From positions 124,001 to 188,000 of the forward strand of contig CAJNDT010000502.1 of assembly GCA_905221615.1 (NCBI GenBank): 64,000 bases of DNA. The letters are read 5' to 3'. The DNA comes from Symbiodinium sp. CCMP2592 (taxonomy: Eukaryota; Sar; Dinophyceae; Suessiales; Symbiodiniaceae). Position 1 is the stretch's first letter. Every line of letters begins with the position of its first letter. Below the pieces are notes generated by a model. That model was not told where the DNA came from and did no database searches. It saw only the letters and a list, made by a program, of their open reading frames with translations. The position numbers were made by a program, and so were the translations under genes. Below, one piece after another: positions 16,770 to 39,000 of the stretch.

Positions 16770-16990
16770 CTTGCCCTTACCCACACGGATCGACTGCCCT
16801 TCTCGGTTCGTGGGCACCGTTGGCCGGGTGTCAGGTTATGAGGCGATTGTATCTAGACCGCCTTGGGGCCAACGTGCCAGGGCAGTGGCATATGACACCC
16901 GGACAAATGGGCTAAAGTGCCGGGTGGGGCGGTTGAGGGGTTGTTCGCAGCCGTGCTTACAGCCTTGAAGGGGAGGCCATCCATGCTTGT
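16770..16990 (+). ncRNA. Structured RNA-like element, copy 1
   Basis: The core has a TTGGCC loop (about 16814-16832), P1 5' strand ACCGCC (16857-16862), the box TTGGGGCCAAC, hairpin P2 CACCCGG/CCGGGTG (16896-16902 with 16920-16926) and P1 3' strand GGCGGT (16928-16933). It ends in GGGAGGCC. Function is unknown. The call rests on base pairs that are conserved between copies while the bases change. Confidence 0.6.
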
Positions 16991-17045
16991 CGTCACGTTT
17001 TGTTAGGGAGCCTTGCGACTTGGATCGACAGAGGCAGAGTGCCAC

Positions 17046-17265
17046 CTTACCCACACGGATCGACTGCCCATCTCGGTTCGTGGACACCGTTGGCCGGGTG
17101 TCAGGTGTTGTCGATGGTACCTGGACCGCCTTGGGGCCAACGTGCCAGGGCAGTGGCATATGACACCCGGGCACATGGGCTAAAGTGCCGGGTGGGGTGG
17201 TCCAGTGGTTGTGGCTTTTTTATTTTTCTCCCAACCAGGAGGGGAGGCCATCCATGCTTGTCACG
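17046..17265 (+). ncRNA. Structured RNA-like element, copy 2
   Basis: Hairpin P0 GACACC/GGGTGTC (17083-17102), P1 GGACCGCC (17123-17130) with GGTGGTCC (17196-17203), box TTGGGGCCAAC at 17131 and P2 CACCCGG/CCGGGTG (17164-17194). A GGCAGAGTGCC word ends at 17043, three bases before the element. This copy is about 85-90% like copy 1. Confidence 0.6.
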
Positions 17266-17299
17266 TTAGTTAGGGAGCCTTGCGACTTGGATCGACAGA

Positions 17300-17390
17300 G
17301 GCAGAGTGCCAGTCGAGCCTCTCGAGGTTGCCTTACTTAAGTCCCTGCCCCATCGGGGTTGCTCCCCACACCGTTGGCCAGGTCTAAGTG
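17300..17390 (+). ncRNA. Structured RNA-like element, truncated copy 3
   Basis: It starts with GGCAGAGTGCCAGTCGAGCC and a CCTC/GAGG hairpin, reaches CACACCGTTGGCC and then diverges, so P1 and P2 are missing. Confidence 0.5.
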
Positions 17391-17752
17391 TTCGGTTTGA
17401 ATCCAAGCCTAGTGAACGCCTTCTCTTCCATTTCCTTCTCTCCCATCGGTCTTCATCGGCTTCCAGCCCATCGAGAAGTGGATGCCAACTGCTGGGATCT
17501 CAGCATCAGCTTGCTTCAGCTACTTCCATTATTATGGTACAGTCCTGGCACCGAGGCTCATGACGAGGATCCTGAGGACATGCTGCCATCGCAGAGGACA
17601 AGCTGCCTTGCATAGTCAGTGAGCGTGTCATGTATCGCAACTTGCCGCTGCAGCAGTTGTGCTCGCTGTTGCCCTGCGTAATCTACTATAGTCGTGTTAC
17701 AGCTGCTCTGTCTCAAGTCTAAGTCGTAGTAGGCCCCCCTGCAAGCCGGCAG
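17391..17752 (+). other. Non-coding spacer before the first gene
   Basis: Pyrimidine-rich sequence with short frames only. From about 17704 it shares the 5' flank of the 866-bp tandem duplication. Confidence 0.6.
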
Positions 17753-18569
17753 ATGTCGTCGACGTCGTGGAGTGACAGTGAGTCTGTGGGCTCGGACTGG
17801 GTTCTGGTTGACGATGAGGGTGCAAGCACTGCGGGCTCGGTCGCGGACAGTTTTGACGACGATGATTCTGTGATTCCGTTCGACACGATGCTAGAGGAGT
17901 GCTTTACGACATTCTGGATGTTTCTGAATTCTCAAGAGCGTGGGCAAGTCTTGCAAGTAGCCTGGTCTGTCAATGAGCAGATCATGTTCACACTCTTTCC
18001 GAGACTTCGGCGGGATTTTCGGCAAGGCAGAGTGCCAGGAATTTTATATTACAATGTGTCAGACGAATTTCTGGCGTTACTGCTTCAATGATTTGTCGTG
18101 TTTGTACAGCCTCCGAGACCGTATTACGGATGTTGGGGAAGGCAGAGTGCCGGGTTTGCGTGTGTTTAGAGGATTTTGAATTCGACGATCTCGCCAGCAG
18201 AGCTAGACTGTCCGATTTGAGACCTCAGCGGTAGTGTGCGCAACTTGGATTCAAAACGGTTACCCAGCATGACATGCTGACTACACAGTGCCGGGTGGCA
18301 GTGATGTCCTCAGGACCCTGCTGTCTCCGAGGCTGGCTGCCTGCCTGCCTGCCTGCATAGTCTGTCAGTGAGTTGCCTTGCACCATACATGATCGACATC
18401 TGTCTGCCGGCCAGGGAATCAAGTGATTCATTCATACTGATGTAACAGTAGTAACACAATGTTACATATCATTGATTAATGTACTGTATAGTGATGCATT
18501 AGTCACTGTTAATGTTTTAATCTTTGGACAATTGAAGTGTGCTCGATGAAAGCAGTGATCCCGACGACC
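17704..18569 (+). repeat. Tandem duplication, unit 1 (about 866 bp)
   Basis: The unit carries one 112-residue frame, a RING-like fragment and a (TGCC)n run. It is repeated directly downstream, about 866 bases on, from about 18570 to 19444. Confidence 0.9.
17753..18091 (+). CDS. Hypothetical acidic protein, tandem copy 1
   Basis: I do not recognise this 112-residue protein. It starts M-S-S-T-S-W-S-D-S-E-S, is rich in Ser, Asp and Glu in its first half and has a more structured part around F-W-M-F-L-N-S-Q-E-R-G-Q-V-L-Q-V. Near the C-terminus a GGCAGAGTGCC word is read as Q-G-R-V-P. The second tandem copy at 18619 keeps the same start and end and differs mostly by substitutions and a few in-frame codons, which supports coding. 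About 60 bases after the stop a frame with C-R-V-C-V-C-L-E-D-F-E (18140-18235) looks like the beginning of a RING finger and could be a following exon. Confidence 0.6.
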   Translation: MSSTSWSDSESVGSDWVLVDDEGASTAGSVADSFDDDDSVIPFDTMLEECFTTFWMFLNSQERGQVLQVAWSVNEQIMFTLFPRLRRDFRQGRVPGILYYNVSDEFLALLLQ

Positions 18570-19444
18570 TGCTCTGTCTCTAGTCTAAGTCGTAGTAGGC
18601 CTCCGTGCAAGCCGGCAGATGTCGTCGACGTCGTGGAGTGACAGTGAGTCTCTGGGCTCGGTCTCGGACTTATTGGCTGTTGGCGAGTTTGCAAGCACTG
18701 CGGCGTTTGGGGGTTCGTTTGTGGGCTCGGTCGCGGACAGTTTTGACGACGATGATTATGTGATTTATTTCGACGAGCTGCTAGAGGAGTCCTTTTCGAC
18801 ATTGTGGATGTTTCTGAATTCTGAAGAGCGTGGGCAAGTCTTGCAAGTAGACTGGCATATCAATGACATGATCCCGTGCGTACTCGTTCCGAGATTTGTG
18901 CGGCAAGGCAGAGTGCCAGGAATTTTACATTACAATGTGTCAGACGAATTTGTGTCGTCACTGAATCAATGATTTGTCGTGTTTGTACAGCCTCCGAGAC
19001 CGTATTACGGATGTTGGGGAAGGCAGAGTGCCGGGTTTGCGTGTGCTTAGAGGATTTTGAATTCGACGATCTCGCCAGCAGAGCTAGACTGTCCGATTTG
19101 AGACCTCAGCGGTAGTGTGCGCAACTTGGATTCAAAAAGGTTACCCAGCATGACATGCTGACTACACAGTGCCGGGTGGCAGTGATGTCCTCAGGACCCT
19201 GCTGTCTCCGAGGCTGGCTGCCTGCCTGCCTGCCTGCATAGTCTGTCAGTGAGTTGCCTTGCACCATACATGATCGACATCTGCCGGCCAGGGAATCAAG
19301 TGATTCATTCATACTGATGTAACAGTAGTAACACAATGTTACATATCATTGGTTAATGTACTGTATAGTGATGCATTAGTCACTGTTAATGTTTTAATCG
19401 TTGGACAATTGTGTGCTCGATGAAAGCAGTGATGCCGACGACCG
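18570..19444 (+). repeat. Tandem duplication, unit 2
   Basis: Second unit of the ~866-bp duplication. It ends just inside the 5' end of the phosphatase-like gene, whose first codons (ATGAAAGCAGTGAT) also occur at the end of unit 1. Confidence 0.9.
18619..18972 (+). CDS. Hypothetical acidic protein, tandem copy 2
   Basis: Paralogue of the frame at 17753, 117 residues long. Shared features are the start M-S-S-T-S-W-S-D-S-E-S, D-S-F-D-D-D-D, W-M-F-L-N-S-E-E-R-G-Q-V-L-Q-V and R-Q-G-R-V-P-G-I-L. It has extra in-frame codons in the Ser/Ala/Gly part. The GGCAGAGTGCC word is at the same place, so it was present before the duplication. The same RING-like fragment (M-L-G-K-A-E-C-R-V-C-V-C-L-E-D-F-E) follows in another frame at about 19010-19115. 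Function unknown. Confidence 0.6.
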   Translation: MSSTSWSDSESLGSVSDLLAVGEFASTAAFGGSFVGSVADSFDDDDYVIYFDELLEESFSTLWMFLNSEERGQVLQVDWHINDMIPCVLVPRFVRQGRVPGILHYNVSDEFVSSLNQ

Positions 19445-20715
19445 TTTCAAGGTGCTCAGGGAGTTCCGAGGCAGAGTGCCAGAGTTCTGCTGCTGACCAT
19501 CATCAGGCCAATCACATTGACCTTGGCAGTGATTACTGGAACGAAGCCGTGCAACAACTTCGGTGGAATTGTTTACACTGTGGCAGATCAGCTGCCGACT
19601 ATACCACCGGGCTCCGAAAGATCCAAAGGGCTGCACAATTGGATCAACGAATCAAATTGGCAGTTGAGGCCATCTCAGATTTCGGAGATATGGATATGAA
19701 GTTGTACAAAGCATGGACCGGCCAGACAGATGTGCTGCCTGGGTCGATCCCGCCACCTCGGCCATGCCAGCATGATGTCGAGACGTGGCCCATGGATGAT
19801 GTTTTGATTTACGACCATCCCCAGTGGCAACTGTTTGTTGGCAGTATTGGTTGCCCGATCCGATATGACCAGCTCCGGGTCAAGCCTGACATTGTCATCT
19901 CTATGAATGCAGATGACAGACCTCGGAATTTTGAGCCATGGGACTGGTATCAGTATTTGGCGAATTGTGGACCGTTTGGCACTGCACATCTTCGGTATGG
20001 TGGCTGGGATCAAACACATGCCAATGACTTTGATGCTGAACAAAGAAGTCATGAGTTCAAGACCATTTGGCGCCGCCTCATTTCAGATTTCAGAAAGATT
20101 ATGATGTGCTGGCAGCGCTCAGCAGAGGAGTTCAGCCAGAGTCAAAGGCAGAGTGCCATCAAGGGCAAAATGATGGGCAAGGCCAATGGCGGCAGGGGCA
20201 AGGGCAAGACAATCAGCAAGGGCTACAGCGGCCCCTGTCAGGTTTCCAATCACATGCAAAGCCAGAAGGCATCGACGAAGGGCTCATTTGGCTATGGCTG
20301 CTCCTATGACAAGGGCTTCAGCAAGGGAAGTGACATGGGCAGCCTGTTCGGAAGAGCCGCTGATGGAAGGCAGAGTGCCGATGGAAGGCAGAGTGCCTTG
20401 AAGGTGGCCGATGAGACATTCCCTGGTGAGCTCGGTAATGCTCTTGCTTTGTTGGAGGCGATGAAGCTTCAGGGAGGTGGTCGGAAGCGTGGAGGCAAGA
20501 AGAGGCCAATTCGTGTGCTTGTCCATTGCTACGGTGGCATTAACAGGACCTGTGCTGCTTATTGTGTCCTAGTCATGGCCTTTGCCTCGATGACCATGGA
20601 ACAAGCCATTGTCAGGTGGATCAACCACCGAGCCTACTATGCTCCATTCCGGGATCGTGAGTACATGATTGAAGCACTGCTGGAAATGCAGGATGAGCTG
20701 CACACGTACAGTTGA
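19420..20715 (+). CDS. Dual-specificity phosphatase-like protein with a low-complexity insert
   Basis: A protein of 431 residues from the first ATG. The signature H-C-Y-G-G-I-N-R-T (His369-Cys370...Arg376-Thr377) is the H-C-x5-R loop of cysteine phosphatases. The likely start of the phosphatase fold, W-Q-L-F-V-G-S-I-G-C-P-I and P-D-I-V-I-S-M-N, lies around 137-165, so the domain is interrupted by about 130 residues. That insert (roughly 235-335) is rich in Lys, Gly, Gln and Ser and contains three GGCAGAGTGCC words read as R-Q-S-A; a fourth, read as A-E-C-Q, is near the N-terminus. After the signature a helix-rich tail (A-I-V-R-W-I-N-H-R) is as expected. Catalysis is plausible because Cys and Arg are present; the substrate is unknown. 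Confidence 0.75.
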   Translation: MKAVMPTTVSRCSGSSEAECQSSAADHHQANHIDLGSDYWNEAVQQLRWNCLHCGRSAADYTTGLRKIQRAAQLDQRIKLAVEAISDFGDMDMKLYKAWTGQTDVLPGSIPPPRPCQHDVETWPMDDVLIYDHPQWQLFVGSIGCPIRYDQLRVKPDIVISMNADDRPRNFEPWDWYQYLANCGPFGTAHLRYGGWDQTHANDFDAEQRSHEFKTIWRRLISDFRKIMMCWQRSAEEFSQSQRQSAIKGKMMGKANGGRGKGKTISKGYSGPCQVSNHMQSQKASTKGSFGYGCSYDKGFSKGSDMGSLFGRAADGRQSADGRQSALKVADETFPGELGNALALLEAMKLQGGGRKRGGKKRPIRVLVHCYGGINRTCAAYCVLVMAFASMTMEQAIVRWINHRAYYAPFRDREYMIEALLEMQDELHTYS

Positions 20716-21233
20716 TCATCGACACTGAACCCGAAGTCCATGGTCAAACAGTTCTGCTCCAATGAATGATTCTGAGCCGTCGAAATTTGTGTCCCGACAC
20801 TGGCCCAGCCAGAGAGTCCTGGACCCGACACTGGACTGCTGGCTGGAAGTGAAACACAGTCCTTACCTTGATAAGGCTAATAGTTACATTCCCACTTTCA
20901 GCTGGCAGTCACAGCTTAATTCGTGCTTTTAAACCTGGCTGCCGGTGTTACTGACTGAGCTTAAAAAGAAAGTGAGATCATGCCCGTCTCGGTTGTGGAA
21001 ACTGTCAGTTCCTTTGTCGGTTGTGCCGACATGGTGATCAGGGCCGCTGGGGCGATTGGATGAGTGAATCCAGCCGGCGACTCAGTGGGTGCAAGTGTGA
21101 CTTTAACAGTCAGTCTCCGGTGATTGTAATGAGTGCTCATTTTTGCCTACTTGTGCTGTTGCAGCTGTCTGGGTTCCGGTGTAAGGCAGAGTGCCCTTGT
21201 CCCATTTGTGCAGTGGGCAAGTCATTATCCGCC
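20716..21233 (+). other. Spacer with possible intron
   Basis: No clear gene. A pyrimidine-rich stretch ending CCCATTTGTGCAG near 21215 could be a 3' splice site for the next gene, and contains one GGCAGAGTGCC word at 21185. Confidence 0.5.
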
Positions 21234-21831
21234 ATGGAAAACACGGGCGCAGTTCGCCAGCGCACTCGGCTGCAAGAGTTTTCAAGTTGGCAGATGGCCA
21301 ACTTGAGCAACGCCGGTCAATCCCAAAGAACAAGTCAGGTCGGGAAGGGAGGAAGTAAGGGAGGAGGAAAGCCAGGGCCAGGGCAGAGTGCCAGTGCGAG
21401 CAAGGGCGATCTTGGCAAGGGCAAGGGAAAGGGCAAAATCCCGATGCAAGACCCCAACCAGATCCTTTACACATACTTCATGTGCGTGGAGGACGTTTGG
21501 CAGGCAGTGGGCAGTGTATGTGATGATAATCATAGCATGTGTTTGATTGTGAGTGTTTCTTACTGCTTGACTGGATGTCTCCCTGCAGGTTCGATATGAA
21601 TTCTTCAAAGCGAACGGCATCGCCGCTTGGGCGCAACCCGGTGCCACGCAGGATAACACTCACAAAAGTTATCCGCACTGGTCCTTGCGCCCCACGGCCC
21701 AGACGGCCCTTCAACGCTACCAATGGTGGCCAAAGTGCATTAGATGGCCACTCAGATTCAAGCAATGCTTCGACGCTACATTTATTTATTATCTTATACC
21801 TACGGATCTTAATACTGACTAGAATCAAGTA
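21234..21831 (+). CDS. Hypothetical G/K-rich protein, two exons
   Basis: I do not recognise the product. The first exon (ATG 21234 to 21515) encodes M-E-N-T-G-A-V-R-Q-R-T-R-L-Q-E-F and then a Gly/Lys/Ser-rich linker (G-K-G-G-S-K-G-G-G-K, G-K-G-K-G-K-G-K) and D-P-N-Q-I-L-Y-T-Y-F-M. A 73-bp intron (21516-21588, GTATGTG...CTGCAG) is inferred; removing it joins G-S to V-R-Y-E-F-F-K-A-N-G-I-A-A-W-A-Q-P-G, which stays open to the stop at 21829-21831. A GGCAGAGTGCC word (21382) is read as Q-S-A. The real start may be in an upstream exon. The C-terminal part is rich in Trp and Tyr, suggesting a folded region. Confidence 0.55.
21516..21588 (+). other. Putative GT-AG intron
   Basis: 73 bp, GTATGTGATG at the 5' end and TCTCCCTGCAG at the 3' end. 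Its length is not a multiple of three and its removal joins two open frames. Confidence 0.6.
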
Positions 21832-21912
21832 GCAACTTCAACATGATCTCAGTTCAGGATCGATCAACACGCACCGCCAGCTTACCTGAAGCTGGAACTC
21901 ACCGGTGCAGGC

Positions 21913-22194
21913 ATGCAAGTGATGATGGACAAAAGATGGCTCTATGCCTGTAATGAGGGCTGGGCGCGGGGGGTGGAGAATTTGACGCTGTGGGACGGGG
22001 AAGTCACCGACGGTGACCAAATCTTGTGGACCACGACCATGGTGAGATTCGCTTACGACGAAGATGATCCGGAGGCCTGGAATGAAGAGCGTGTGGAAGA
22101 TGAGGAGGATTACAACGAGTTCGAATTGCCTATGATTGAGCAAGTTCAAATGACACCTGTAGACAGCGAATTCGTTGAAGTCCAAAGGCCGTGA
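21913..22194 (+). CDS. Hypothetical acidic protein or exon
   Basis: A 93-residue frame with M-Q-V-M-M-D-K-R-W-L-Y-A-C-N-E-G-W and an acidic tail (Y-D-E-D-D-P-E-A-W, V-E-D-E-E-D-Y-N-E-F). V-E-N-L-T-L-W resembles V-G-A-E-N-L-T-F in the large gene at 24192, and the DNA around it is similar too. The sequence before the ATG is a possible 3' splice site (CACCGGTGCAG), so this may be a last exon of the preceding gene. Three GGCAGAGTGCC words follow the stop within 50 bases. Confidence 0.45.
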   Translation: MQVMMDKRWLYACNEGWARGVENLTLWDGEVTDGDQILWTTTMVRFAYDEDDPEAWNEERVEDEEDYNEFELPMIEQVQMTPVDSEFVEVQRP

Positions 22195-23330: not shown

Positions 23331-23375
23331 GTGCCGCAGGATGACAGCGCCTGTGCATGCGAGTCCGCTTGGTCA

Positions 23376-24249: not shown

Positions 24250-27029
24250 CGTTTGCCTTGGTGGACTGCTCCGGTTGCCTACCAATTAATGATGTTCCCG
24301 CAAAAAAGATGAAGGGTCACCTCAACTGCTTTCTGAGCTTGTGGCAAATTCCCTCAAACCACAGCGCCACCGTCTCCGAGTACGCGTCAGAGGTCTGGAA
24401 GAAGATGCTTGCCGCTGGCGAAAAATTCAAAACGGACTATGGACCGAATAAGTGGAGAACTGGTGAAATGGTGTACGATCTGTACAAGTTGTGCAAGAAT
24501 CTGGAAGCAAAGTTCCAGCAGGGTCTGGACTTGATGCAACAATGCCAGCAAATGAGGGTCGAGGCAACAAGGGCAGTAATGAGCAGAATTCAGCCGCAGG
24601 CACTTGCGCCGCCGAATCCTCCGCCACCTCAGTGTTGGGATTCGACACCTCCCTGGGATCCCCCTGGATCTGCGACTGCAAAAGCCAAAGGGATGAAAGG
24701 AGGAGTGCCAGTAGAAGGCAGAGTGCCAGGCAAAGGCAAAGCAATACATCATCCTGATGGGACTCCTCCCAGGGGGGCCCGCCCGCCTTTGCATAAACCG
24801 CCTCAGCAAAAGGCGAGGCCTCCTGCTCCGTGGCAGGTGCCAGTAAGACCGCTGCGAAATGCTGGGCCTCTGCCTGATCACCCTTGGCAGCAGGAGTGGG
24901 AACCACTTCCTCCTGGCAGGGTGCAACCAGATCATCCTCCTCCTGGCAGGGGGCCGGTGCAACCAGATCATCCTCCTCCTGGCAGGGGGCCGGTGCAACC
25001 AGCTCATCCTCCTCCTGGCCACCAGCAGCAGCAACATCGCTGGGGCAGAACGGCCAGAATGCCCGTCATCCAGGACGAATACGATGCCTGGCATGACGAT
25101 GAGCCGAATCCCGAGCCGAATTCCCGGCCAAGAGTGCCAGAGCCGATGGGTCCCCCGCCGGCAAAGCAGCCTCCTGCCAAAAGGAAATTCGGCGACGGAC
25201 AGCCTGTGCCTGTTGGTTCCAAGCCACAGTTTATGTCGGCAAGTGCTCCTGCTGAAATGACGGAAAAGCAAAGGATGGACGAGCAGGATTTCGCCAAGGA
25301 ACTTGCCGAGTATGCTGACGATACGGCAAGAGGCTCCAATTTCGTTCCGCAGGGCCGACGCGCTGAGCCGGCCTGGGTGGCAAAGGCCCAGGGCTTGAAA
25401 AGCAAGGGCGACGCCGTCCCGATCGGGAAAGCAGCTTTCTTCGCCCAAAAGGGCAAGCCTGCCGGAAAGGGCCACAAAGGCAGAGTGCCAGTGGAGGACA
25501 ATATCCCTACTGACCTTGTTGGAAAGGGCCGTCCAGCCCTAGTGCCACTTGTTGGAAAGGGCCGTCCCAATATCCCTACTCACCTTGTTGGAAAGGGCCG
25601 TCCAGGCGAAGCTCATCCTGCTTTTTTGCGGCATATGAAGACGGAGAAGGGAGGAATATGGTTGGACCCCAAGGAGGAGGTGGAAGCCGAGGAGGAGGAC
25701 ACTTTGGTTGATGTTGTGGTGGAAGAGGAGGAGCCTGTGCAAGATCCGTCGGACGATGAAATGGAATTTGTCGAGGTTATGGTGCAGGATGAGCAACCGC
25801 CGCTTGAGATGGAGGCGGAGCCCGAGGAGGATGAGCATGCGTTCGCCACGGCTGCCTCGATTCACCCGGATCGCTTGGACGAGGATGAGGGTGACAGCCA
25901 AGCAACAATGGTACTAGGGGACCATCTCCGAGAGGAGCAAGATGAGCCGATGCCTTCTGTACCGGAGACCCGGGTGACTGAGAGCGAGCACGATGCCGTC
26001 GTCGCCAAGGTCATGAACGAGCTGGAGGCTATGAATGTGGACCCGAGCCCGAAGGCTGCCGCAAACCCCAAGAGTGCGACTGCGCCAGTGCCTGGAGAGG
26101 TGAAGCCTTTCTTGGAAGCGGAGGAGGACCTCGGAATTACGGACCCCCAAGGCAGAGTGCCAAGGGGTCAAAACAAGATCAAGGTTCCAGCCGAGCTTTT
26201 GCAGCCAGAGACTGAGGAGGAGAAAACTCTCAGAGCGTTGCGGGGAATGCTGCCATGCAGTCACAGGGCGGTGACGACTTCGAAGGTGGGCCGCCTCGCC
26301 AATCGGGCACGTATGTCGAGACCGGTGCCACAAGATCAGCCGTTCAACCCCCACCACAACGATCGGAAGTTCAACAGCAAGACTACGACTGTCATGACCC
26401 AGCTGCTCATGGCTGTCCATGAGATCACAGTCCGAGAATGCGAGAAGAATTCCTTGCCAATGGAGAAGAAGGAAATGGTGTGGAATGACTTTCGGTCGAA
26501 GGGCTCGAAAACTGTGGTTGTCTGGGATCTGTTGTGTGACCAGGGCATGAAGGAGATTCCAAACAATTCTGAGCCTGGGGACTGGCACCTGTGGCTTCAG
26601 AGGGAAACTGGGGTGGCGGTCATTGAGCAGATTCTCCAGTGCATGTTCAATGTCACTCCGCCAGTTCATGGCCGTGATCGAGTCAAGGGAAAACATCTGA
26701 CATACTGGCACTGGTGGGAGGCCTCCAAGAGACTCGTTGAGGTTTATACGACGGAAGATGTCATCTCAAAGGAAAAATTCAGGCCCAAAGACCTGCAGAG
26801 CTGGATTGTGCCTTTGTCGTGCAAGATTTGGGATGCTTACAATTACACCATGCTTGTGTATTGTCAGAAGAAGCTGGAACAGAAGGCAAGGGGGGAAAAC
26901 CTAGACGCGGTGAGCCAGATGGGTGATGATGTCCCGCCATCGGAAGATGAAGAGTATGTGGATGTTTACCAGACCACTGCGAACTTCGTTCCTGATTGGG
27001 GAGTAACTGCAGATGGCTTTCAGGATTGA
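24192..27029 (+). CDS. Large proline-rich / acidic protein, unknown
   Basis: 945 residues from the ATG at 24192, which may be internal to a larger gene. Regions in order: a helical N-terminal part (F-L-S-L-W-Q-I-P-S-N-H-S, Y-G-P-N-K-W-R-T-G-E-M); a Pro-rich stretch with tandem H-P-P-P-G-R-G-P-V-Q-P-D units (about 240-280); repeats of L-V-G-K-G-R-P (about 435-475); a long Glu/Asp-rich segment (about 490-620); and a conserved-looking C-terminal domain (about 690-945) with H-L-T-Y-W-H-W-W-E-A-S-K-R and S-W-I-V-P-L-S-C-K-I-W-D. Five GGCAGAGTGCC words are all read as G-R-V-P, in linkers and not in the C-terminal domain. I cannot assign a function; the C-terminal part looks like a folded domain of a lineage-specific family. 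Confidence 0.6.
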   Translation: MGGRVPDHKGRVPVGAENLTFALVDCSGCLPINDVPAKKMKGHLNCFLSLWQIPSNHSATVSEYASEVWKKMLAAGEKFKTDYGPNKWRTGEMVYDLYKLCKNLEAKFQQGLDLMQQCQQMRVEATRAVMSRIQPQALAPPNPPPPQCWDSTPPWDPPGSATAKAKGMKGGVPVEGRVPGKGKAIHHPDGTPPRGARPPLHKPPQQKARPPAPWQVPVRPLRNAGPLPDHPWQQEWEPLPPGRVQPDHPPPGRGPVQPDHPPPGRGPVQPAHPPPGHQQQQHRWGRTARMPVIQDEYDAWHDDEPNPEPNSRPRVPEPMGPPPAKQPPAKRKFGDGQPVPVGSKPQFMSASAPAEMTEKQRMDEQDFAKELAEYADDTARGSNFVPQGRRAEPAWVAKAQGLKSKGDAVPIGKAAFFAQKGKPAGKGHKGRVPVEDNIPTDLVGKGRPALVPLVGKGRPNIPTHLVGKGRPGEAHPAFLRHMKTEKGGIWLDPKEEVEAEEEDTLVDVVVEEEEPVQDPSDDEMEFVEVMVQDEQPPLEMEAEPEEDEHAFATAASIHPDRLDEDEGDSQATMVLGDHLREEQDEPMPSVPETRVTESEHDAVVAKVMNELEAMNVDPSPKAAANPKSATAPVPGEVKPFLEAEEDLGITDPQGRVPRGQNKIKVPAELLQPETEEEKTLRALRGMLPCSHRAVTTSKVGRLANRARMSRPVPQDQPFNPHHNDRKFNSKTTTVMTQLLMAVHEITVRECEKNSLPMEKKEMVWNDFRSKGSKTVVVWDLLCDQGMKEIPNNSEPGDWHLWLQRETGVAVIEQILQCMFNVTPPVHGRDRVKGKHLTYWHWWEASKRLVEVYTTEDVISKEKFRPKDLQSWIVPLSCKIWDAYNYTMLVYCQKKLEQKARGENLDAVSQMGDDVPPSEDEEYVDVYQTTANFVPDWGVTADGFQD

Positions 27030-28174: not shown

Positions 28175-28234
28175 GGTCAGCAATGATCCCTGAACCCTCC
28201 CCCCACAAAGCCTAGATAAGCCTTACTGACTGAG

Positions 28235-32154: not shown

Positions 32155-32609
32155 TGGAGGAAGGTGAGGAGTCCGACTCTGAGGCTTCTTCCACTAATGC
32201 TGTTTGTCAGATGGAAGACTGATTATTTTAGCTCACCAGCAAAGACTGCATAGAAGGCAGAGTGCCAGTGCAGAATCTGCCTGACAATTGGCTGCCACCT
32301 CGGTGGTCTCGCAATCGTCGAGTGATATGGATGGACTGCTGTGTGCGGTACCAGAAAAACGAGAATCGAGTGAGGGTCTGGCAGTACTGTATTTGATTGC
32401 TTGAGCATGAAGTCATGGTCTGCAACAACTATGCCACATGTGAATTTCAACGAGTGATTGCATCATGTCTGTCTCATCCTTGTGTTGTGATGGATCAATC
32501 GACTCACAAGTTTGTCAACTGCTGAATGTGCTGGTTCACAATTACGTTGTTAATTCGAACACCCTTGAGGTTAAGGTGTTACACTTTCTTGCGGATAGGA
32601 CAGAGTGCC
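32155..32609 (+). other. Spacer before the methyltransferase-like gene
   Basis: It contains one hairpin word (32256) and a degenerate one, GGACAGAGTGCC, whose last C is directly followed by the ATG at 32610. Short frames only. Confidence 0.6.
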
Positions 32610-33683
32610 ATGGACAATGCAATGTCGAGTGCCATGTCTGCAGCAGCAGATGACACGACTGAAACAAGAAGAAGACTGTTAGCAGACATTCGGCGGCAGT
32701 TTGATGCAAACATCGCACTGGAGAAGAGATTCTTGGCCATTTCGAGAGGACAGGATGTTCTGCGCCTTTGCGAAGTTGACCCGTCGCTTCTGGAGTTCCA
32801 TAATGAAGGTCCTTATGAAGTTCTGCCTGAGTGCAACTATGATGTGATTCTTGAAGCCAGTGGGTTTTTCTGGATGATATCAATCTGGCAACAAATGTTA
32901 TCAGAAACTTTTCCCATCATGACTTCGTGGCCATGGAAGAAACAGATGAGATTCCTCATCAACTTTTCTCATTGGAAGCGGAACATAAGGCAGAGTGCCA
33001 GGTTCCACTTCCTGGAGATCTTTGCAGGGCAGGGCAACCTCAGTCGGGAGATGCTCCGTGCTGGCTGGCAGGGGCTAGCCTTGGACATCAGGGACGGCAC
33101 AGATCATGATATTCTTTCTGTGAGAGGACTTCGCCTGGCTGTCAATGCTGTGTGTCAAACACACAAACACGGCCTGGTGTGGTTTGGAACTCCATGCTCT
33201 TCCTTCGTCCAACTCTGTAAATACAGTACTCGAAGGTCCATTGCCAATGACTGGATGGGAGAACCTGAGCGATCGCTGGCATGCCAAGAAGGCAATCGTT
33301 TCATGTATGTGACGCTGCTGTTGACTTTGCTCGCGGCTTTGAATGACAACCGGTTTGTGATCGAGCAGCCTTGCTCCAGCATGCTGTTCGACATTCCACT
33401 CGTCGATCGTGTCATGGGAATGATCCAGGCTATGAAGGTCAAAACCTATGGTGGTGCCTTCGGCCAGCCCATCCTTAAACCGCTTCAACTGTGGAGCAAC
33501 TGTCAGCACATCAATGGTATGCGGCGCAGCTATCCTTCCCATGTCAGAGGAAGTGCTGGTTGCGTTGATCGAGATGGTGAGAAGTTCACCGGTCGTCCTG
33601 AAGATCTTCAGGTGTCAGAGGAGTACACCCCGGAGTTCGGCAAGGCTGTGTCCTTTCATATGATGAGTGATGTCCCAACATGA
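32610..33683 (+). CDS. Methyltransferase-like protein (L-E-I-F-A-G / P-C-S-S type)
   Basis: 357 residues from ATG 32610. After a charged helical N-terminus comes F-L-E-I-F-A-G-Q-G-N-L-S (about 133-144), the glycine-rich SAM-binding motif I of Rossmann methyltransferases, then D-I-R-D-G-T-D-H-D-I, W-F-G-T-P-C-S-S-F (about 191-199) in the place of the P-C motif of cytosine-C5 enzymes, and F-V-I-E-Q-P-C-S-S-M (about 250) in the place of E-N-P. Overall order and spacing resemble the C-terminal domain of the retrotransposon polyprotein in this window, which has A for C. A GGCAGAGTGCC word at 32989 is read as R-Q-S-A, only about five residues before motif I. Activity and substrate (DNA or RNA) are not shown by sequence. 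Confidence 0.6.
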   Translation: MDNAMSSAMSAAADDTTETRRRLLADIRRQFDANIALEKRFLAISRGQDVLRLCEVDPSLLEFHNEGPYEVLPECNYDVILEASGFFWMISIWQQMLSETFPIMTSWPWKKQMRFLINFSHWKRNIRQSARFHFLEIFAGQGNLSREMLRAGWQGLALDIRDGTDHDILSVRGLRLAVNAVCQTHKHGLVWFGTPCSSFVQLCKYSTRRSIANDWMGEPERSLACQEGNRFMYVTLLLTLLAALNDNRFVIEQPCSSMLFDIPLVDRVMGMIQAMKVKTYGGAFGQPILKPLQLWSNCQHINGMRRSYPSHVRGSAGCVDRDGEKFTGRPEDLQVSEEYTPEFGKAVSFHMMSDVPT

Positions 33684-33901
33684 ATTGTAGCTGAAGGCAG
33701 AGTGCCAATAAGGCAGAGTGCCATAATTCTCTAGAGTTAAATGAGCTTGCTTCATCTTTCGACATTCTGTCTTGTTGGTATTCTGCTTTCCAATGTTGGG
33801 ACTGGGTTGAGCCCTGGCCCCCGTCCGTTCCCTCCACGAGGTGCCGAGGAAAATCCTCGCCGCCTCGTGGAAGGATCTGAGTGATCCGAGCTGGTGCAGC
33901 T
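33339..33901 (+). repeat. 563-bp segment duplicated across the gap, copy 1
   Basis: It comprises the last 115 codons of the methyltransferase-like gene and its 3' flank. It ends exactly at the first N, and the matching copy begins exactly after the last N, with roughly eight to ten differences by eye. Confidence 0.9.
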
Positions 33902-34001
33902 NNNNNNNNNNNNNNNNNNNNNNNNNNNNNNNNNNNNNNNNNNNNNNNNNNNNNNNNNNNNNNNNNNNNNNNNNNNNNNNNNNNNNNNNNNNNNNNNNNN
34001 N
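33902..34001. other. Assembly gap of 100 N
   Basis: Exactly 100 unknown bases, a usual placeholder length. The true distance is not known. Confidence 0.99.
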
Positions 34002-34346
34002 TTGAATGACAACCGGTTTGTGATCGAGCAGCCTTGCTCCAGCATGCTGTTCGACATTCCACTCGTCGATCGTGTCATGGGAATGATCCAGGCTATGAAG
34101 GTCAAAACCTATGGTGGTGCCTTCGGCCATCCCATCCTGAAACCGCTTCAACTGTGGAGCAACTGTCAGCACATCAATGGTATGCGGCGCAGCAATCCTT
34201 CCCATGTCAGAGGAAGTGCTGGTTGCGTTGATCGAGATGGTGAGAAGTTCACCGGTCGTCCTGAAGATCTTCAGGTGTCAGAGGAGTACACCCCGGAGTT
34301 CTGCAAGGCTGTGGCCTTTCATATGATGAGTGATGTCCCAACATGA
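34002..34346 (+). pseudogene. 3' fragment of the methyltransferase-like gene after the gap
   Basis: The frame L-N-D-N-R-F-V-I-E-Q-P-C-S-S-M to the stop repeats the end of the gene at 32610 with a few substitutions (for example H for Q, N for Y, C for G). The rest of this copy would lie in the gap. Either it is a second tandem gene or an unmerged overlap of two contigs. The exact match of the copy limits to the gap borders favours an artefact. Confidence 0.6.
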
Positions 34347-34564
34347 ATTGTAGCTGAAGGCAGAGTGCCAATAAGGCAGAGTGCCATAATTCTCTAGAGT
34401 TAAATGAGCTTGCTTCATCTTTCGACATTCTGTCTTGTTGGTATTCTGCTTTCCAATGTTGGGACTGGGTTGAGCCCTGGACCCCGTCCCTTCCCTCCAC
34501 GAGGTGCCGAGGAAAATCCTCGCCGCCTCGTGGAAGGATCTGAGTGATCCGAGCTGGTGCAGCT
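34002..34564 (+). repeat. 563-bp segment duplicated across the gap, copy 2
   Basis: It starts with the first base after the gap. The two hairpin words after the stop (34359, 34375) correspond to those at 33696 and 33712. Confidence 0.9.
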
Positions 34565-34926
34565 GTGCAATGAAAATGTAGAGAACTTCAGTCACTCCGT
34601 GATCAGATGTGTTTGTCGGTATTGTCTCAGTTCGTATGCTGCTGTCGTGCAGGTGGCAATGACCTGGCTGGTGTCTCGACCTCCAGTTGCAGGCATCGGT
34701 GGCCTGTGTTAAGCATTCCATGTGGTTGTCAGTTCAGTGCCATCTGCGATAGTTTCCTGTCTCAAGTTCGAGTGACATGATGTGGCTGCTGACAGGTCAT
34801 CGTGAGTCTTTGGGTTGATTTCTTAAGAATTCAATGTGTTGTGAACTGGGGCTTGTTACACAAGTGCAGGTGTGTGTCAGTATTTAGTAAGATTCAAGTA
34901 CAGTGTTGCTTTGGAGGATTTCGGGG
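34565..34926 (+). other. Spacer, no gene seen
   Basis: TG-rich sequence without hairpin words; possibly leader or intron sequence of the gene at 34927. Confidence 0.5.
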
Positions 34927-35955
34927 ATGCTTCTGAAACTGTGGGTCATGCTATTGCTCCGTGATGGGCAATTGCTTAACTTGGAAAATGATGCAAAACT
35001 GCCAGCGAGAGCAGCTTGGCTCTCACAGGGCGAACTGTGGTGGCGTCTGTACTTGTTTTTCGATGAGAGCAACAGGAACGGCTCAGAACGTCGACAGTAC
35101 CACAAATGGTACAACTTCTTCAGTGATCTTCTCAGGAAGACCCCCTTGGCTGCGAACTGGGGGTCACATGTGCAAAGTCAAAAAGGCAGAGTGCCAAACC
35201 CTGATGCTGTAAAGGAGGATGTGGCATCTTCCACAGCCTTGGCCCGATTCATGTTGCAAGCATCCTTCGACACAAGGACAGACGCCCACAGGGAATGGTA
35301 CAAGAGAAAACTGAATGATGCTATGGTACGTGTGTGTGAAACTATCAGTGATGAGCCTCTGGTCATGCAGTTGGATGAAGGCAGAGTGTCATGGTTTCTT
35401 CAATCCGCTGGGTTGGTGTCAGGCTTTGCCGCTTGGATGATGAAGTCGCTGGCAGGCAACACGTCCCGATCTTTGCGGCAGCTTTGGGAATCTATGTTCA
35501 ATGCAAGGACGCTGTCTTCATCTCTCCGATATGAATCTGAAGGCAGAGTGCCACGAGATTGGGAGGAGGTTGAAACTAGCATCTACGACATCATCGCCTT
35601 TGCAACCATGGCAAAAAAACACAGAGCGCTTCAACCGTCGGGGCAGGCTCATGTATTTGCCAAGACAGTCGTGAATGCCTTCATGCACATACATGAGTGT
35701 CTGTCCGAGACATTGTCAGCCGGCCTCCAGGTGTATGTCATTGGGCACTACTTGAGTGTACATGATGCTGGTGTGCCTGGGACGTCTCGCAGGGCACTTC
35801 TGGGCAAGCGTGTTCCATTGAAAAAGACTGTGGACATCAAAAGCATCTGGAAGTTGCTAGAGGGCGCTGCAAAAAGTGGGACCTCTTTGCGACAAGCCCT
35901 CATTCTCAAGAACCAGGACGAACGCAGCGACCTCCATGGTTCCTTGGTGATTTGA
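34927..35955 (+). CDS. Helical protein, unknown
   Basis: 342 residues from the first ATG. The protein is Trp- and Arg-rich and predicted by eye to be mainly helical (W-L-S-Q-G-E-L-W-W-R-L-Y-L-F-F, H-K-W-Y-N-F-F-S-D-L-L-R-K, H-R-E-W-Y-K-R-K-L-N-D-A-M). Three hairpin words fall in its loops: K-G-R-V-P (35185), E-G-R-V-S (35381, one change) and E-G-R-V-P (35542), all in the same reading phase. I do not recognise the family. The first hydrophobic residues M-L-L-K-L-W-V-M-L-L-L could be a signal anchor or merely an upstream exon artefact. Confidence 0.6.
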   Translation: MLLKLWVMLLLRDGQLLNLENDAKLPARAAWLSQGELWWRLYLFFDESNRNGSERRQYHKWYNFFSDLLRKTPLAANWGSHVQSQKGRVPNPDAVKEDVASSTALARFMLQASFDTRTDAHREWYKRKLNDAMVRVCETISDEPLVMQLDEGRVSWFLQSAGLVSGFAAWMMKSLAGNTSRSLRQLWESMFNARTLSSSLRYESEGRVPRDWEEVETSIYDIIAFATMAKKHRALQPSGQAHVFAKTVVNAFMHIHECLSETLSAGLQVYVIGHYLSVHDAGVPGTSRRALLGKRVPLKKTVDIKSIWKLLEGAAKSGTSLRQALILKNQDERSDLHGSLVI

Positions 35956-35960
35956 TATGG

Positions 35961-36016
35961 AGTAGAATGTTGTTTTGTTAACCAGTTGTTTAAGATTAGT
36001 GAATTCTTTGTCACAC
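35961..36016 (+). repeat. 56-bp direct repeat, left copy
   Basis: AGTAGAATGTTGTTTTGTTA to GTCACAC recurs at 38220-38277 with one substitution and a 2-bp insertion. Confidence 0.9.
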
Positions 36017-36699
36017 ATTCATTTGATGCCACGTACCCGCGCCACAGTCGAACTAAATTCGCCTACCGCTCTTGCCATGGCCGACCCGACGTTCGGCTCT
36101 TGCGCCAAGCTGTTGGCCAAGTCCAGCAGAAGGTAATGTCGGGGGCAGAAGTATCCGCTGTGAACTCTGGGATGGCACCACGACGACCACGACGTCCTGC
36201 TTCTTTGCGAGCAGAGGGCGACATAAGCATAGCGCGGGCAAATGCTTGCAGCTGCTAGTGGTCGTTGAGAGCCTTCGCCTGATATCCCCATGGCAGAGCG
36301 GGGTGACCCCATATCTCGGCCGAATTGGGGTGGCCTAAGTCTCCGGTCCGCATGACTGTCAGAGCACGTTCGTCTTTGCAAAGACGCCGGGGAGGCCGTT
36401 ACAGAAAGGGATGCTTAAGTCAGGTTGTGCATTTAATATTTATGAAAGGCAGAGTGCCAAAGGCAGAGTGCAAGTAAAACTTCTCAGGGTTTAGTAGGGT
36501 TTAGTGGTTTGCTGCGCTTGCTGTTGATCAGAAAATCCTTGTCGATTCGCTTGCCGGCATGTGGAGGCATGTGTGTGGCCGCTACCCAGGACTCGCTGTG
36601 TCTCGCACAGGGCTCTGAGGGAAGAACGTAGTGCAGGGCAACGTATAGTCGCACACCATTAGCCGGGGTCACTTCCCTGAGGGTTCGCTAGTGCAGGGC

Positions 36700-36850
36700 A
36701 GCTTGTAGTTCACACCGTTAGCCGGGTGTGGCGGGCCGCTGTTTGGGATTTTCGGGCTCTTGAGGCCAACGGGTATCTGCTGACCAGATCCCTATGACAG
36801 CAGGACACATGGGCTAACGTGCCTGCTGGGAGCCCCCCATTTATGTCTCT
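36700..36850 (+). ncRNA. Structured RNA-like element, copy 4
   Basis: P0 CACACC/GGGTGTG (36711-36730, loop GTTAGCC), P1 GGGCTC (36754) with GAGCCC (36830), box TTGAGGCCAAC (36760) and P2 CAGCAGG/CCTGCTG (36798-36828). Both stems differ in sequence from copies 1 and 2 but still pair. Confidence 0.6.
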
Positions 36851-37174
36851 GCACGCTCTGGCTAGCCAGTAGTCAGGGCGAGATGATGACCCACTCGGTG
36901 GCAGCAGGGGAGGCTCTTGAACTGTTGATCGACCGAGTGCGCAACATGGAAGGCCGAATCGAGTGAGTAGTCATTAAGTGTCAGGTTGTGATCAAATTTA
37001 TGAAAGGCAGAGTGCCAAAGGCAGAGTGCCAGTAAAACTTCTAAGGGTTTTTTAGTAGGGTTTAGTGGTTTGCTGTGCTTGCTTTTTGATCATAAACGTC
37101 CTTGTCGATTCGCTTGCCCGACCTAAACCTGAGCAGCGGGCTGGCCGAGGGGGCCCTAGAGACCTGCCAGGTTC

Positions 37175-37390
37175 CATCTTGTTGGCCGTGTTGGGGGCAG
37201 CGATCCATCCGGAGCTGAAAGCTTGGCCACGGACGCCTGCGTGGCCTCGTGGCGGCCACCCTTGGGGCCAACTCCCCTACAGCCCGAGGGGTATGACAGC
37301 AGGGCGATGCGCTAATGCGCCTGCTGGGGGTGGCTTAAATGGGGGGCGGGTGTGTCCTTCCCCCCCCGGTGAGATCCTAAAAGGGAGGCC
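37175..37390 (+). ncRNA. Structured RNA-like element, copy 5
   Basis: P1 GCCACCC (37255) with GGGTGGC (37328), box TTGGGGCCAAC (37262), P2 CAGCAGG/CCTGCTG (37297-37326) and GGGAGGCC at 37383. GTTGGCC is at 37181, but P0 is weak here. Confidence 0.6.
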
Positions 37391-37902
37391 GCTTGAGTTG
37401 TGTTGTAAAGAGAAGGGTGAGATAGTGCCTTCTTCCGTTCTTGCCTGTGCTCACTTTTGCGCGCAAGTGGCCCTGGGATCAGGTCTATCGTTGATCGTTT
37501 GGCATGGCCTGTAGTGGCAGTGTAGCAGCCTGCTGTAAGTTTCCACTACCCCAGCCGCCAGCTGTGCCTAGTGCCTGCTACTCACAGGGTGATTTCGGCC
37601 TGTGCCTGGTTTGTTTCTATCGGCGCGTTGCGGGCGATGTTTACGCCGAAGCAAAGCAAGTCTCCGGGATCCTTCACAGCGCATGTGTGCAAATGGCCTG
37701 CTGAGCAACAGCTGCGACGGGATCGGGATCCGGCACAGCGCTCTCATCTTAATATTCCCTGTGAGCATGGCGACCCACCTTGGCCGAGTGGGGTGGATTT
37801 CAGCAAATGGGGGAGGCCGCTAACCCATGATTAGGCTATATCTCTTTCTGCTGAGCACATGCTTTCTGTTCTCTTGGATCGACGACATAGGCAGAGTGCC
37901 GA

Positions 37903-38170
37903 GGCAGAGTGCCAGTCGAACCTCTTCGGTGTTGCCTTACCTAAGGAGTAAACCCCTGCCCCACCAGGGTTGCTCCCCACACCATTGGCCATGTGTGAGG
38001 CGTTCGGGTTGCCTGTGTCACAGCCTTGAGGCCAACCTATCCCAGGGGCAGGGGGTAGATGACAGCCGGGCACATGGGCTAATGCGCCGGCTGGGGCTGT
38101 GACCTGGTGACATCGAAGCAGTCATGCAAGTCACCGGAGGCAATACCGGACAAAGAAGGGAGGCCGTTCT
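37903..38170 (+). ncRNA. Structured RNA-like element, copy 6 (most complete)
   Basis: It begins with the hairpin word joined to AGTCGAACCTC. P0 CACACC...TGTGTG is at 37978-37997. P1 is nine perfect pairs, GTCACAGCC (38017) with GGCTGTGAC (38095); the box TTGAGGCCAAC is at 38026 and P2 CAGCCGG/CCGGCTG at 38063-38093. It ends in GGGAGGCC (38158). Confidence 0.65.
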
Positions 38171-38219
38171 TGGGACATGGCTGTGTTGTTGAGCTGGTGT
38201 GTTCCTCCGTCTCATTCAT

Positions 38220-38277
38220 AGTAGAATGTTGTTTTGTTAGCCAGTTGTTTAAGATTATAGTGAATTCTTTGTCACAC
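38220..38277 (+). repeat. 56-bp direct repeat, right copy
   Basis: Partner of 35961-36016; together they bracket 2.2 kb with copies 4-6 of the structured element. Confidence 0.9.
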
Positions 38278-38279
38278 CA

Positions 38280-38514
38280 ACCTTACCAACAAGTCGCGGT
38301 GGGTCCAGTTTTGATTCACCAGCCGCGCTTGCATGCCGATGGCCGGGCATGGGGTCGCTCTGGCGGACCGCGGAAGAAGGAACCGATCGAGGACTTGGGG
38401 CCAACCACCAGAGCGGACACCTGGTGATGACAGCCAGTCACACATATGCCAACGTACTGGCTGGGTCCGAGCTCGGCACCCGAGTGTCCACCTCAGCAAC
38501 ATGGGAGGCCAAAT
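38280..38514 (+). ncRNA. Structured RNA-like element, copy 7
   Basis: P2 CAGCCAG/CTGGCTG (38431-38463) carries an A-T pair where other copies have G-C. P1 is short (GGAC/GTCC). An extra stem CGCTCTGG/CCAGAGCG (38356 and 38408) encloses the box TTGGGGCCAAC. It ends in GGGAGGCC (38503). Confidence 0.55.
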
Positions 38515-38540
38515 ATCGAGCAGAAGTACAGTAATTAGAG

Positions 38541-38665
38541 TGTCAGTCGAACCTCCCCTCAAGGTTGCCTTACCTAGCTGGATTTTCTGCGACCTCGGAT
38601 CGTGTTGTCCGGGCCAGACTTCCAGGTTCCGAACAAAGAAGGGAGGCCGTCCGTTCTTGGGACAT
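38541..38665 (+). ncRNA. Structured RNA-like element, fragment lacking the core
   Basis: The 5' end (GTCAGTCGAACCTC...AAGGTTGCCTTACC) and the 3' end (GAACAAAGAAGGGAGGCCGT) are present, but P1, box and P2 are missing. Confidence 0.5.
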
Positions 38666-38799
38666 GGTTGTCTTATTGCGCAGAGAACCTTGCTCGGCTT
38701 GCTGTTCGGTTGTGTTTGTCACGAGTGCCAACATGTTCAGAATGGGGTTTGGTGTATGTTGCTCTACCAAGCGGCAGCTGCATGCCCGCCAATTTTGGC

Positions 38800-39000
38800 A
38801 GCTACCGACACACTGTTGGCCGGGTGTGGAGCGCGGGGAAGGGCACTGGGGTCCCGCAGTCTAGGGGGGGGTTGGGGCCAACGGCCAGCGGGCATCTGGC
38901 TATGACATCTGGACACATGCGCTAACGTGCCAGGTGGCCCCTCCCGAAAATGACGTAGCCTCGGTGACCCAAGCTCTTCCATGGGAGGCCGAAGAATGGT
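38800..39000 (+). ncRNA. Structured RNA-like element, copy 8
   Basis: P0 CACACT/GGGTGTG (38809-38828, loop GTTGGCC), P1 from a G run (38864-38871) with CCCCTCCC (38938), box TTGGGGCCAAC (38872) and P2 CATCTGG/CCAGGTG (38906-38936, one U-G pair). It ends in GGGAGGCC (38993). Confidence 0.6.

What the first reader, a model, noticed from the sequence alone, without database searches (positions are those of the whole stretch)
16770..39000. A repeated element with compensatory base changes: a probable new structured RNA
In seven copies the bases just before the box TTG(G/A)GGCCAAC pair with those just after hairpin P2, although the sequences differ: ACCGCC/GGCGGT, GGACCGCC/GGTGGTCC, GGGCTC/GAGCCC, GCCACCC/GGGTGGC, GTCACAGCC/GGCTGTGAC, GGAC/GTCC, and a G run with CCCCTCCC. 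P2 likewise varies in step: CACCCGG/CCGGGTG, CAGCAGG/CCTGCTG, CAGCCGG/CCGGCTG, CAGCCAG/CTGGCTG, CATCTGG/CCAGGTG, with a conserved loop around ATGGGCTAA. A further hairpin, ACACC...GGGTGT, holds TTGGCC in its loop, complementary to GGCCAA of the box, so a pseudoknot is possible. Covariation of this kind is the usual mark of selected RNA structure.
Basis: seen in the sequence. Interest (0 to 1): 0.92.

Follow-up and report, generated by a model that had tools for sequence, protein, structure and literature searches.

The report
New large folded RNA in dinoflagellate
The repeated element is real: it is a new RNA shape of roughly 230 letters that this dinoflagellate genome carries in thousands of copies, many of them inside very large repeated elements, and its pairing has been kept while its letters changed, so it very probably does something as an RNA, although what it does is not yet known.

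Summary
The host, a 1.1-Gb genome, carries the dinoflagellate spliced leader. The core pattern GGCCAAC...ATGACA occurs 3166 times against 246 for a control. Divergent copies reveal an RNA of about 205-295 nt: a first three-way junction (P0, hairpin A, H0), a long-range helix P4 around the second junction (P1, P3, P2), and a tail GGRAGGCY. In a tree-aware covariation test, 9 pairs are significant and all 9 lie in the structure. G-U outnumbers A-C 83 to 12 at paired sites, pointing to the sense RNA. No Rfam family matched in the scans made. The proposed pseudoknot is possible but has no covariation behind it. Where an ORF could be read, units lie upstream on its strand. Best guess: a cis-acting RNA-processing module, perhaps a ribozyme; function is untested.

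The parts
16774..16978 (+). Unit 1, full RNA: 5' CCCTTACC, hairpin A, H0, core, 3' box GGGAGGCC at 16971-16978
16854..16936 (+). Unit 1 core three-way junction (P1, GGCCAAC, P3, ATGA, P2, P1')
   Evidence: 89.8 bits
17044..17249 (+). Unit 2, full RNA: P0 ACCT/AGGT, hairpin A, H0 GACACC/GGTGTC, core, 3' box 17242-17249
17122..17204 (+). Unit 2 core three-way junction
   Evidence: 96.1 bits
36711..36915 (+). Unit 3: H0 with loop TTAGCC (36711-36730), core, 3' box GGGAGGCT (36908-36915; a second candidate GGAAGGCC lies about 40 nt further on); no TACC found
36751..36838 (+). Unit 3 core three-way junction
   Evidence: 82.8 bits
37253..37390 (+). Unit 4: core 37253-37336 and 3' box 37383-37390; first domain (P0, hairpin A, H0) not recognisable
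   Evidence: (83.5 bits)
37934..38165 (+). Unit 5, full RNA: GCCTTACC, hairpin A, H0 (loop ATTGGCC), P4 seen in the minimum-energy fold, core 38017-38103, 3' box 38158-38165
   Evidence: (87.2 bits)
38280..38510 (+). Unit 6, full RNA: ACCTTACC, hairpin A, H0 CATGCC/GGCATG, core 38386-38473, 3' box 38503-38510
   Evidence: (75.3 bits)
38761..38990 (+). Unit 7, full RNA: GCTCTACC with P0 GCTC/GAGC, hairpin A, H0, core 38863-38946, 3' box 38983-38990
   Evidence: (90.8 bits)
17330..17385 (+). Remnant: first domain alone (GCCTTACT, hairpin A, CACACCGTTGGCC) with no core behind it
   Evidence: read by eye; no model hit there
38567..38648 (+). Remnant: GCCTTACC joined to the 3' part and GGGAGGCC; compare the intact unit in L107 at 7729-7958
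   Evidence: by eye
16734..16741 (+). Isolated 3' box GGGAGGCC; others at 36390 and 37811 (and one far away at 26716)
   Evidence: GGGAGGCC 11 times on +, 0 on -
39081..41969 (+). Long open frame (962 aa, stop to stop) directly downstream of the five-unit cluster; a closely similar frame follows the cluster in L107
   Evidence: no Pfam hit at E 0.1

Best explanation
Best supported: a new family of large structured RNA. Units with recognised ends run from about 205 to 295 nt. Domain I is a three-way junction: helix P0 (such as GCCC/GGGC) closes hairpin A and hairpin H0 (CACACC-RYYRGCC-GGGTGTG), with a constant UACC in the junction. Helix P4, of variable sequence, then encloses domain II, a three-way junction of P1, P3 and P2 with GGCCAAC, usually AUGA, and a P2 loop around AUGSGCUAA. 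Some families also have a hairpin with loop GGGAAUCU. The RNA ends in GGRAGGCY. The sense strand is the one whose pairing is kept. Inferred: units are read as part of longer sense transcripts rather than from own promoters, because no conserved sequence was found outside the unit. Inferred mechanism: the tail GGRAGGCY docks on domain I (UACC and the RGCC loop of H0), giving a compact fold that acts in cis on transcripts of giant repeated elements, most likely by causing cleavage at the unit (self-cleavage or recruited cleavage) and so freeing RNA for the downstream ORF. About 0.95 for 'real new structured RNA'; about 0.35 for 'cis processing module'; the confidence given here is for the latter.
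For: Covariation in the window: 16 of 24 pairs, controls. In other genome copies; tree-aware test. Domain I: 94.3% of 456 cells paired against 77.8% shuffled and 39-53% slid, 15 of 19 pairs changed on both sides (24 of the 30 units listed). P4: own partners pair better than swapped ones, 0 of 20000 permutations as good, 29 units. Strand: G-T 83 against A-C 12 at paired cells of A5 and A6; 17 to 2 in A2 and 72 to 17 in A4; p 6e-10 for A5 and A6 after leaving out 18 cells of a near-constant U-G pair (cells are not independent). Constraint: between two copies of one family the unit differs at 5 of 221 sites, the leader after it at 27 of 188 (p 4e-6). Two of the five are one compensatory U-A to C-G change, two are in loops, one makes a U-A pair U-G (placed by eye). 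Boundaries: no column reaches 60% identity in up to 40 nt before GCCYTACC across 20 units; after GGRAGGCY two of 42 columns reach 60% and none 80%. Placement: same strand as and upstream of the ORF in the carriers where one could be read. No Rfam hit.
Against: No transcript or biochemical data were available, so transcription, cleavage and docking are inferred. Folding energy is only modestly better than shuffled sequence: 7 of 17 units have z of -2.0 or lower. P4 is poor in four units (c2, L102:2519, L109:1669, L127: at least 20 of 28 swapped partners pair better). 15 of 24 core pairs are not significant singly. Cores two kilobases from the ORF are also intact, so an ORF-linked role is not proven. 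In several loci (for example L082, L090, L127) no clear downstream ORF was identified. The P1-closing tail contacts have no covariation. All copies come from one genome, and most probably belong to one giant repeat family.
Confidence: 0.35

Rival explanations
1. Translation element: the unit recruits ribosomes or factors to uncapped or non-trans-spliced RNAs of the giant element (IRES-like).
For: In the C14/C160 family the unit ends 188 nt before an ATG whose frame differs 1, 1, 7 times at codon positions 1, 2, 3; the five-unit cluster precedes the 39081-41969 frame in the window and a similar one in L107.
Against: Units occur in sets of up to five, the farthest core about 2.2 kb from the ORF and still paired; distance to the ORF varies (188 nt; about 860 nt in L109); which ATG is used is unknown.
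Confidence: 0.2
2. Binding site for an element-encoded or host protein (packaging, export, stability or exonuclease block), without catalysis.
For: Constant unpaired motifs in two junctions and two loops; sets of copies, as expected if the number of sites matters.
Against: No RNA-binding protein was recognised among the ORFs searched; size and complexity exceed what I recall of most protein sites.
Confidence: 0.2
3. Arrays of genes for a trans-acting RNA, such as a guide or RNP RNA, cut from longer transcripts.
For: Sharp conserved ends; tandem, independently diverged copies; variable helices between constant motifs.
Against: No conserved sequence upstream that could be a promoter; no free variable segment at a fixed place that could serve as a guide (by eye).
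Confidence: 0.15
4. The complementarity is mutational: template switching in DNA replication rewrites hairpin arms, so covariation needs no selection on RNA.
For: Described mechanism (PMC8794818; abstract and opening lines seen). P3 of L138 differs from that of c7 at three pairs, two of them changed on both sides, plus one loop letter, while the rest of the core is identical.
Against: Does not explain constant unpaired motifs, lower divergence than flanks, or the strand-specific excess of G-T over A-C.
Confidence: 0.05
5. A known RNA family too diverged for Rfam models.
For: None found.
Against: Gathering scan of the window gave 0 matches; permissive scans of three stretches gave only matches below the family cut-offs. 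The other fetched units were not scanned.
Confidence: 0.05

Closest known systems
Self-cleaving ribozymes of mobile elements (delta-like ribozymes of non-LTR retroelements, hammerheads of Penelope-like elements and retrozymes; recalled)
   Same: Compact multi-helix RNA on the sense strand of a repeated element, sometimes upstream of its ORFs, sometimes in tandem.
   Different: About 205-295 nt with two three-way junctions; helix order does not fit the delta-like nested double pseudoknot (read by eye); no Rfam hit; activity unknown.
Large structured non-coding RNAs found by comparative genomics (GOLLD, HEARO and the like; recalled)
   Same: Size class, many constant unpaired positions, strong covariation, mobile-element setting for some.
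   Different: Those are bacterial or phage RNAs as I recall; this one is in a dinoflagellate nuclear genome in thousands of copies; no Rfam match in the scans made.
Internal ribosome entry and exonuclease-resistant RNAs built on three-way junctions with pseudoknots (recalled, named only)
   Same: Three-way junction with a possible loop contact.
   Different: No Rfam match in the scans made; sets of copies; variable distance to ORFs; pseudoknot not supported by covariation.

Membership tests
Any Rfam 15 family | Score at or above the curated gathering score | tested here: not met
   0 matches in the whole window; permissive scans of window 36500-39100, L109:850-2300 and L127:1800-2250 gave only sub-threshold matches; other units not scanned
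tRNA / tmRNA | Found by ARAGORN | tested here: not met
   0 genes in the window
Selected structured RNA | Pairs that covary beyond phylogeny | tested here: met
   9 significant pairs, all in the structure (24 pairs), 39 non-redundant of 62 copies; 6 of 6 with a sequence-only alignment (own script in the manner of R-scape)
Selected structured RNA | Strand-specific tolerance of G-U pairs | tested here: met
   G-T 83 against A-C 12 in A5 and A6
Selected structured RNA | Clearly lower folding energy than shuffled sequence | tested here: inconclusive
   z of -2.0 or lower in 7 of 17 units
Delta-like self-cleaving ribozyme | Helix order P1-P2-P3-P1'-P4-P2' with nested pseudoknots (recalled) | tested here: not met
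   No hairpin between the 5' strand of the outer helix and GGCCAAC in the seven window copies; by eye
Self-cleaving ribozyme (any class) | Cleavage without protein | not testable with these tools
   needs in vitro transcription
IRES | Internal initiation of translation | not testable with these tools
   needs a bicistronic assay
   49 of 62 copies had all parts; in their 19 distinct combinations the box is GGCC in 17, GACC in 1, not found in 1; AGCC loops in c3 and L083 and L155 break one pair

The most novel reading that the evidence does not exclude
A new natural catalytic RNA class of the eukaryotic nucleus: a two-junction self-processing ribozyme of about 230 nt with thousands of copies in a dinoflagellate genome, which cuts giant-element transcripts into usable messages.
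Probability: 0.2. Interest if true: 0.96.

Novelty: categorically new. Interest (0 to 1): 0.83.

Why it matters
Large RNAs with many fixed unpaired positions and strong covariation are rare, and (recalled) many such RNAs turned out to be ribozymes, riboswitches or RNP cores. This one is abundant in a dinoflagellate genome and linked to giant repeated elements, in a group whose gene expression is described as mainly post-transcriptional and translational (PMC12787238, start of abstract seen in the listing). It gives a directly testable object: a defined transcript of about 230 nt with predicted ends, helices and compensatory mutants.

Tried and rejected
Rfam at gathering and at permissive thresholds: nothing above a cut-off. 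A compound pattern in viral contigs gave 69 stretches; the model found two chance-level hits in them (E 0.31 and 0.46). The H0 pattern CACACCRYTGGCCGGGTGTG, exact matches only, gave 0 in viral contigs and 0 in genome contigs; other dinoflagellate genomes are not held, so no relative outside this genome was found and none is excluded. H0-loop/box pseudoknot: considered, not supported. Tail pairing with UACC and the H0 loop: fits most copies by eye, without covariation; kept as inference. Complementarity of CTTGAGGCCAA to the 3' part of the spliced leader with one bulged G: noticed, absent from families with other letters before GGCCAAC, not pursued. Pfam, NCBIfam and PDB sequence searches of the ORFs gave no function for most. 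This RNA was not seen in the titles and abstract starts listed (capped lists; one search found 0 papers); the search for the word GGCAGAGTGCC failed, so nothing is claimed for it. An earlier count said 28 of 45 paired P3 inserts; the output gives 29 of 45.
Full report
Observation. The box alone is weak (10 matches with up to one mismatch, chance mean 3.48); the compound pattern is not (6 of the 7 copies, chance 0.00). Aligning the seven cores and folding the alignment gives three helices around one junction. P1 joins the bases before the box to those after P2. P2 carries the conserved loop. Of 24 pairs, 16 have at least one copy with both sides changed. In 167 cells 93.4% pair, against 68.4% when 3' letters are shuffled and 35-44% when partners are slid by 1-3 columns. 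A covariance model of the seven finds no eighth copy in the window.

Genome. The window lies in a 1.098-Gb assembly, contig C502. The dinoflagellate spliced-leader 21-mer (recalled) occurs 429 times, its reversed control 0 times, so the host is taken to be a dinoflagellate. The box alone occurs 3769 times against 755 for the reversed pattern. GGCCAACN{14,30}ATGACA occurs 3166 times against 246. Of the 60 loci that I fetched around boxes listed, 16 hold the core at E 0.1 or better and 44 do not (the eight loci cut itself were not scanned). Among 45 distinct inserts typed from the first 100 places listed, 29 have at least 4 of 5 pairs in the P3 position and 16 have 3 or fewer; some of the 29 may be chance.

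Full unit. Pattern GCCCTACCN{30,55}CACACC occurs 493 times against 153 for its control. I fetched 17 of the listed places. Together with 8 of the 10 stretches (L143 and L144, near-copies of L142 and L141, left out), the model found cores in 21 of 25 loci; L159, L160, L163 and L164 have none. These copies show sharp ends. Across 20 units no column in up to 40 nt before GCCYTACC reaches 60% identity (some rows are shorter); after GGRAGGCY two of 42 columns reach 60% and none 80%. Lengths are 206 to 270 nt in the 17 units, 205 in unit 1 and about 295 in L152 (from the positions).

Domain I. I aligned 24 of the 30 units listed, leaving out six that were near-duplicates or cut short. They show a second three-way junction. 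P0 closes hairpin A and H0, for example GCCC/GGGC, GCCT/AGGC, ACCT/AGGT and GCTC/GAGC. Of 456 cells 94.3% pair, against 77.8% shuffled and 39-53% slid; 15 of 19 pairs change on both sides, including all nine of hairpin A. UACC is unpaired and invariant in these 24.

P4. Minimum-energy folds suggested that the segment after P0 pairs with the segment before the 3' box. For 29 units own partners pair at a mean of -16.6 kcal/mol against -11.4 for swapped partners, with 0 of 20000 permutations as good. Of 38 units 7 were dropped for lack of a recognised end or H0, and 2 as near-duplicates. Four units pair poorly (at least 20 of 28 swapped partners do better). Related units are not independent, so the permutation figure is optimistic.

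Ancestry. Related copies can mimic covariation. I therefore wrote a test in the manner of R-scape (FastTree tree, parsimony substitutions reassigned at random along branches, APC-corrected G statistic, 60 null alignments). With 39 non-redundant of 62 copies, 9 pairs reach E < 0.05 and all 9 are in the structure, in all three helices of the core; the other 15 structure pairs do not. With a sequence-only alignment it is 6 of 6. This is my own script, not R-scape, and covers the core only.

RNA and strand. At paired sites G-T outnumbers A-C 83 to 12 in the two most diverse alignments, 17 to 2 in A2 and 72 to 17 in A4. For the 83 to 12, p is 6e-10 without 18 cells of a near-constant U-G pair, counting cells as independent, which they are not. 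Selection on the other strand, or on both strands of DNA alike, predicts no such excess. The sense strand folds more stably than the antisense in 16 of 17 units. Energies against shuffled sequence are modest, z of -2.0 or lower in 7 of 17, so the case rests on covariation, not stability.

Constraint. In one family with several near copies, C14 and C160 differ at 5 of 221 sites inside the unit, 15 of 245 upstream, 27 of 188 in the leader and 9 of 147 in the ORF. Unit against leader p 4e-6; against upstream and leader together p 3e-4. The ORF differences fall 1, 1, 7 on codon positions. Two of the five unit changes are one compensatory pair. This is one pair of copies.

Setting. Where an ORF could be read, units lie upstream of it on the same strand. 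The two-unit cluster precedes a short frame read by eye from ATG at 17753, with similar frames after the units in L102, L103 and L107. The five-unit cluster precedes the 39081-41969 frame, as in L107. Three units precede a frame with a C5-cytosine DNA methylase match in L109 (E 5.8e-6, 26.4 bits against a cut-off of 22). In L082, L090 and L127 no such frame was clear. The window cluster belongs to a giant repeat: the five-unit and two-unit sets recur on C1, C7 and C58. GGCAGAGTGCC occurs 20442 times; at 65 to 80 per element, as in the window, that suggests some 250 to 310 elements, a rough inference which would account for most of the roughly 2900 excess core matches. Seven of the 16 core loci (L082, L083, L088, L090, L109, L127, L129) lack that word within the stretch fetched, so the RNA is not confined to the window's element.

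Pseudoknot. The H0 loop is RYYRGCC, the box GGCC, the tail GGCY. In 49 of 62 copies all parts were found, in 19 distinct combinations. Box GGCC is constant in 17, GACC in one and not found in one; the pair of H0 R with tail Y is G-C in 15, G-T in 3 and A-C in 1. The loop letters facing AAC vary while AAC mostly does not, and AGCC loops (c3, L083, L155) break a pair. So the proposed contact may exist but is not shown. The tail fits the same loop and UACC about as well, also without proof.

Mechanism. Absence of conserved flanking sequence argues for co-transcription; intact cores in tandem argue against a role needing adjacency to a start codon; two domains with fixed unpaired positions and a short constant tail look like a folded active or binding core. 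I therefore favour a cis RNA-processing module (0.35), with translation, protein binding and trans-acting RNA as rivals. No step after the structure itself was tested.

Known families. No Rfam family matched in the scans made. Resemblances to mobile-element ribozymes and large bacterial RNAs are recalled leads. Papers: listings (titles and abstract starts; one search returned none; one title), and the abstract with the opening lines of PMC8794818. None of the listed titles or abstract starts describes this RNA.

Noticed in passing
window 4947-45455: GGCAGAGTGCC occurs 80 times (expected 0.06): 65 on + between 17033 and 44186, also inside ORFs, and 15 on -, 13 of them in the array at 44337-45455. 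In the genome 20442 against 244 for a control. It is on the strand of the RNA units in all nine fetched loci that hold both, 59 to 0, and absent from the 44 fetched loci without a core.
   Followed up: partly
L109 (G000:C33:183375-187375) 99-3974: A different short word, GTCAGAS, occurs 35 times (32 on +; expected 1.6 in all) through a locus with three RNA units and a C5-methylase ORF. Different carriers may have different peppered words; two cases seen.
   Followed up: partly
window 44315-45491: Tandem array of about 94 bp that carries GGCAGAGTGCC in reverse orientation at the downstream end of the giant element.
   Followed up: no
window 19390-20715: ORF with a weak phosphatase match (CDKN3 E 0.0012, 18.9 bits, below the Pfam cut-off of 20.7) and several GGCAGAGTGCC.
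   Followed up: no
window 1985-3010: ORF with a sub-threshold Phage_integrase match (E 1.3e-4, 22.3 bits against a cut-off of 27.1), possibly a tyrosine-recombinase element.
   Followed up: no
window 38883-38901 against L138: P3 of unit 7 and of the same unit on C1 differ at three pairs (two on both sides, one G-T to G-C) and one loop letter, all still paired, while the rest of the core is identical: a candidate template-switch or rapid compensatory change.
   Followed up: partly
window 33075-34277: A duplicated stretch of a methyltransferase-like ORF region (likeness by eye; no Pfam hit) with a run of N in the second copy (100 N in the window).
   Followed up: no
box CTTGAGGCCAAC of several units: Near complement, with one extra G, of the 3' end of the spliced leader (recalled; by eye); not shared by families with other letters before GGCCAAC.
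   Followed up: no
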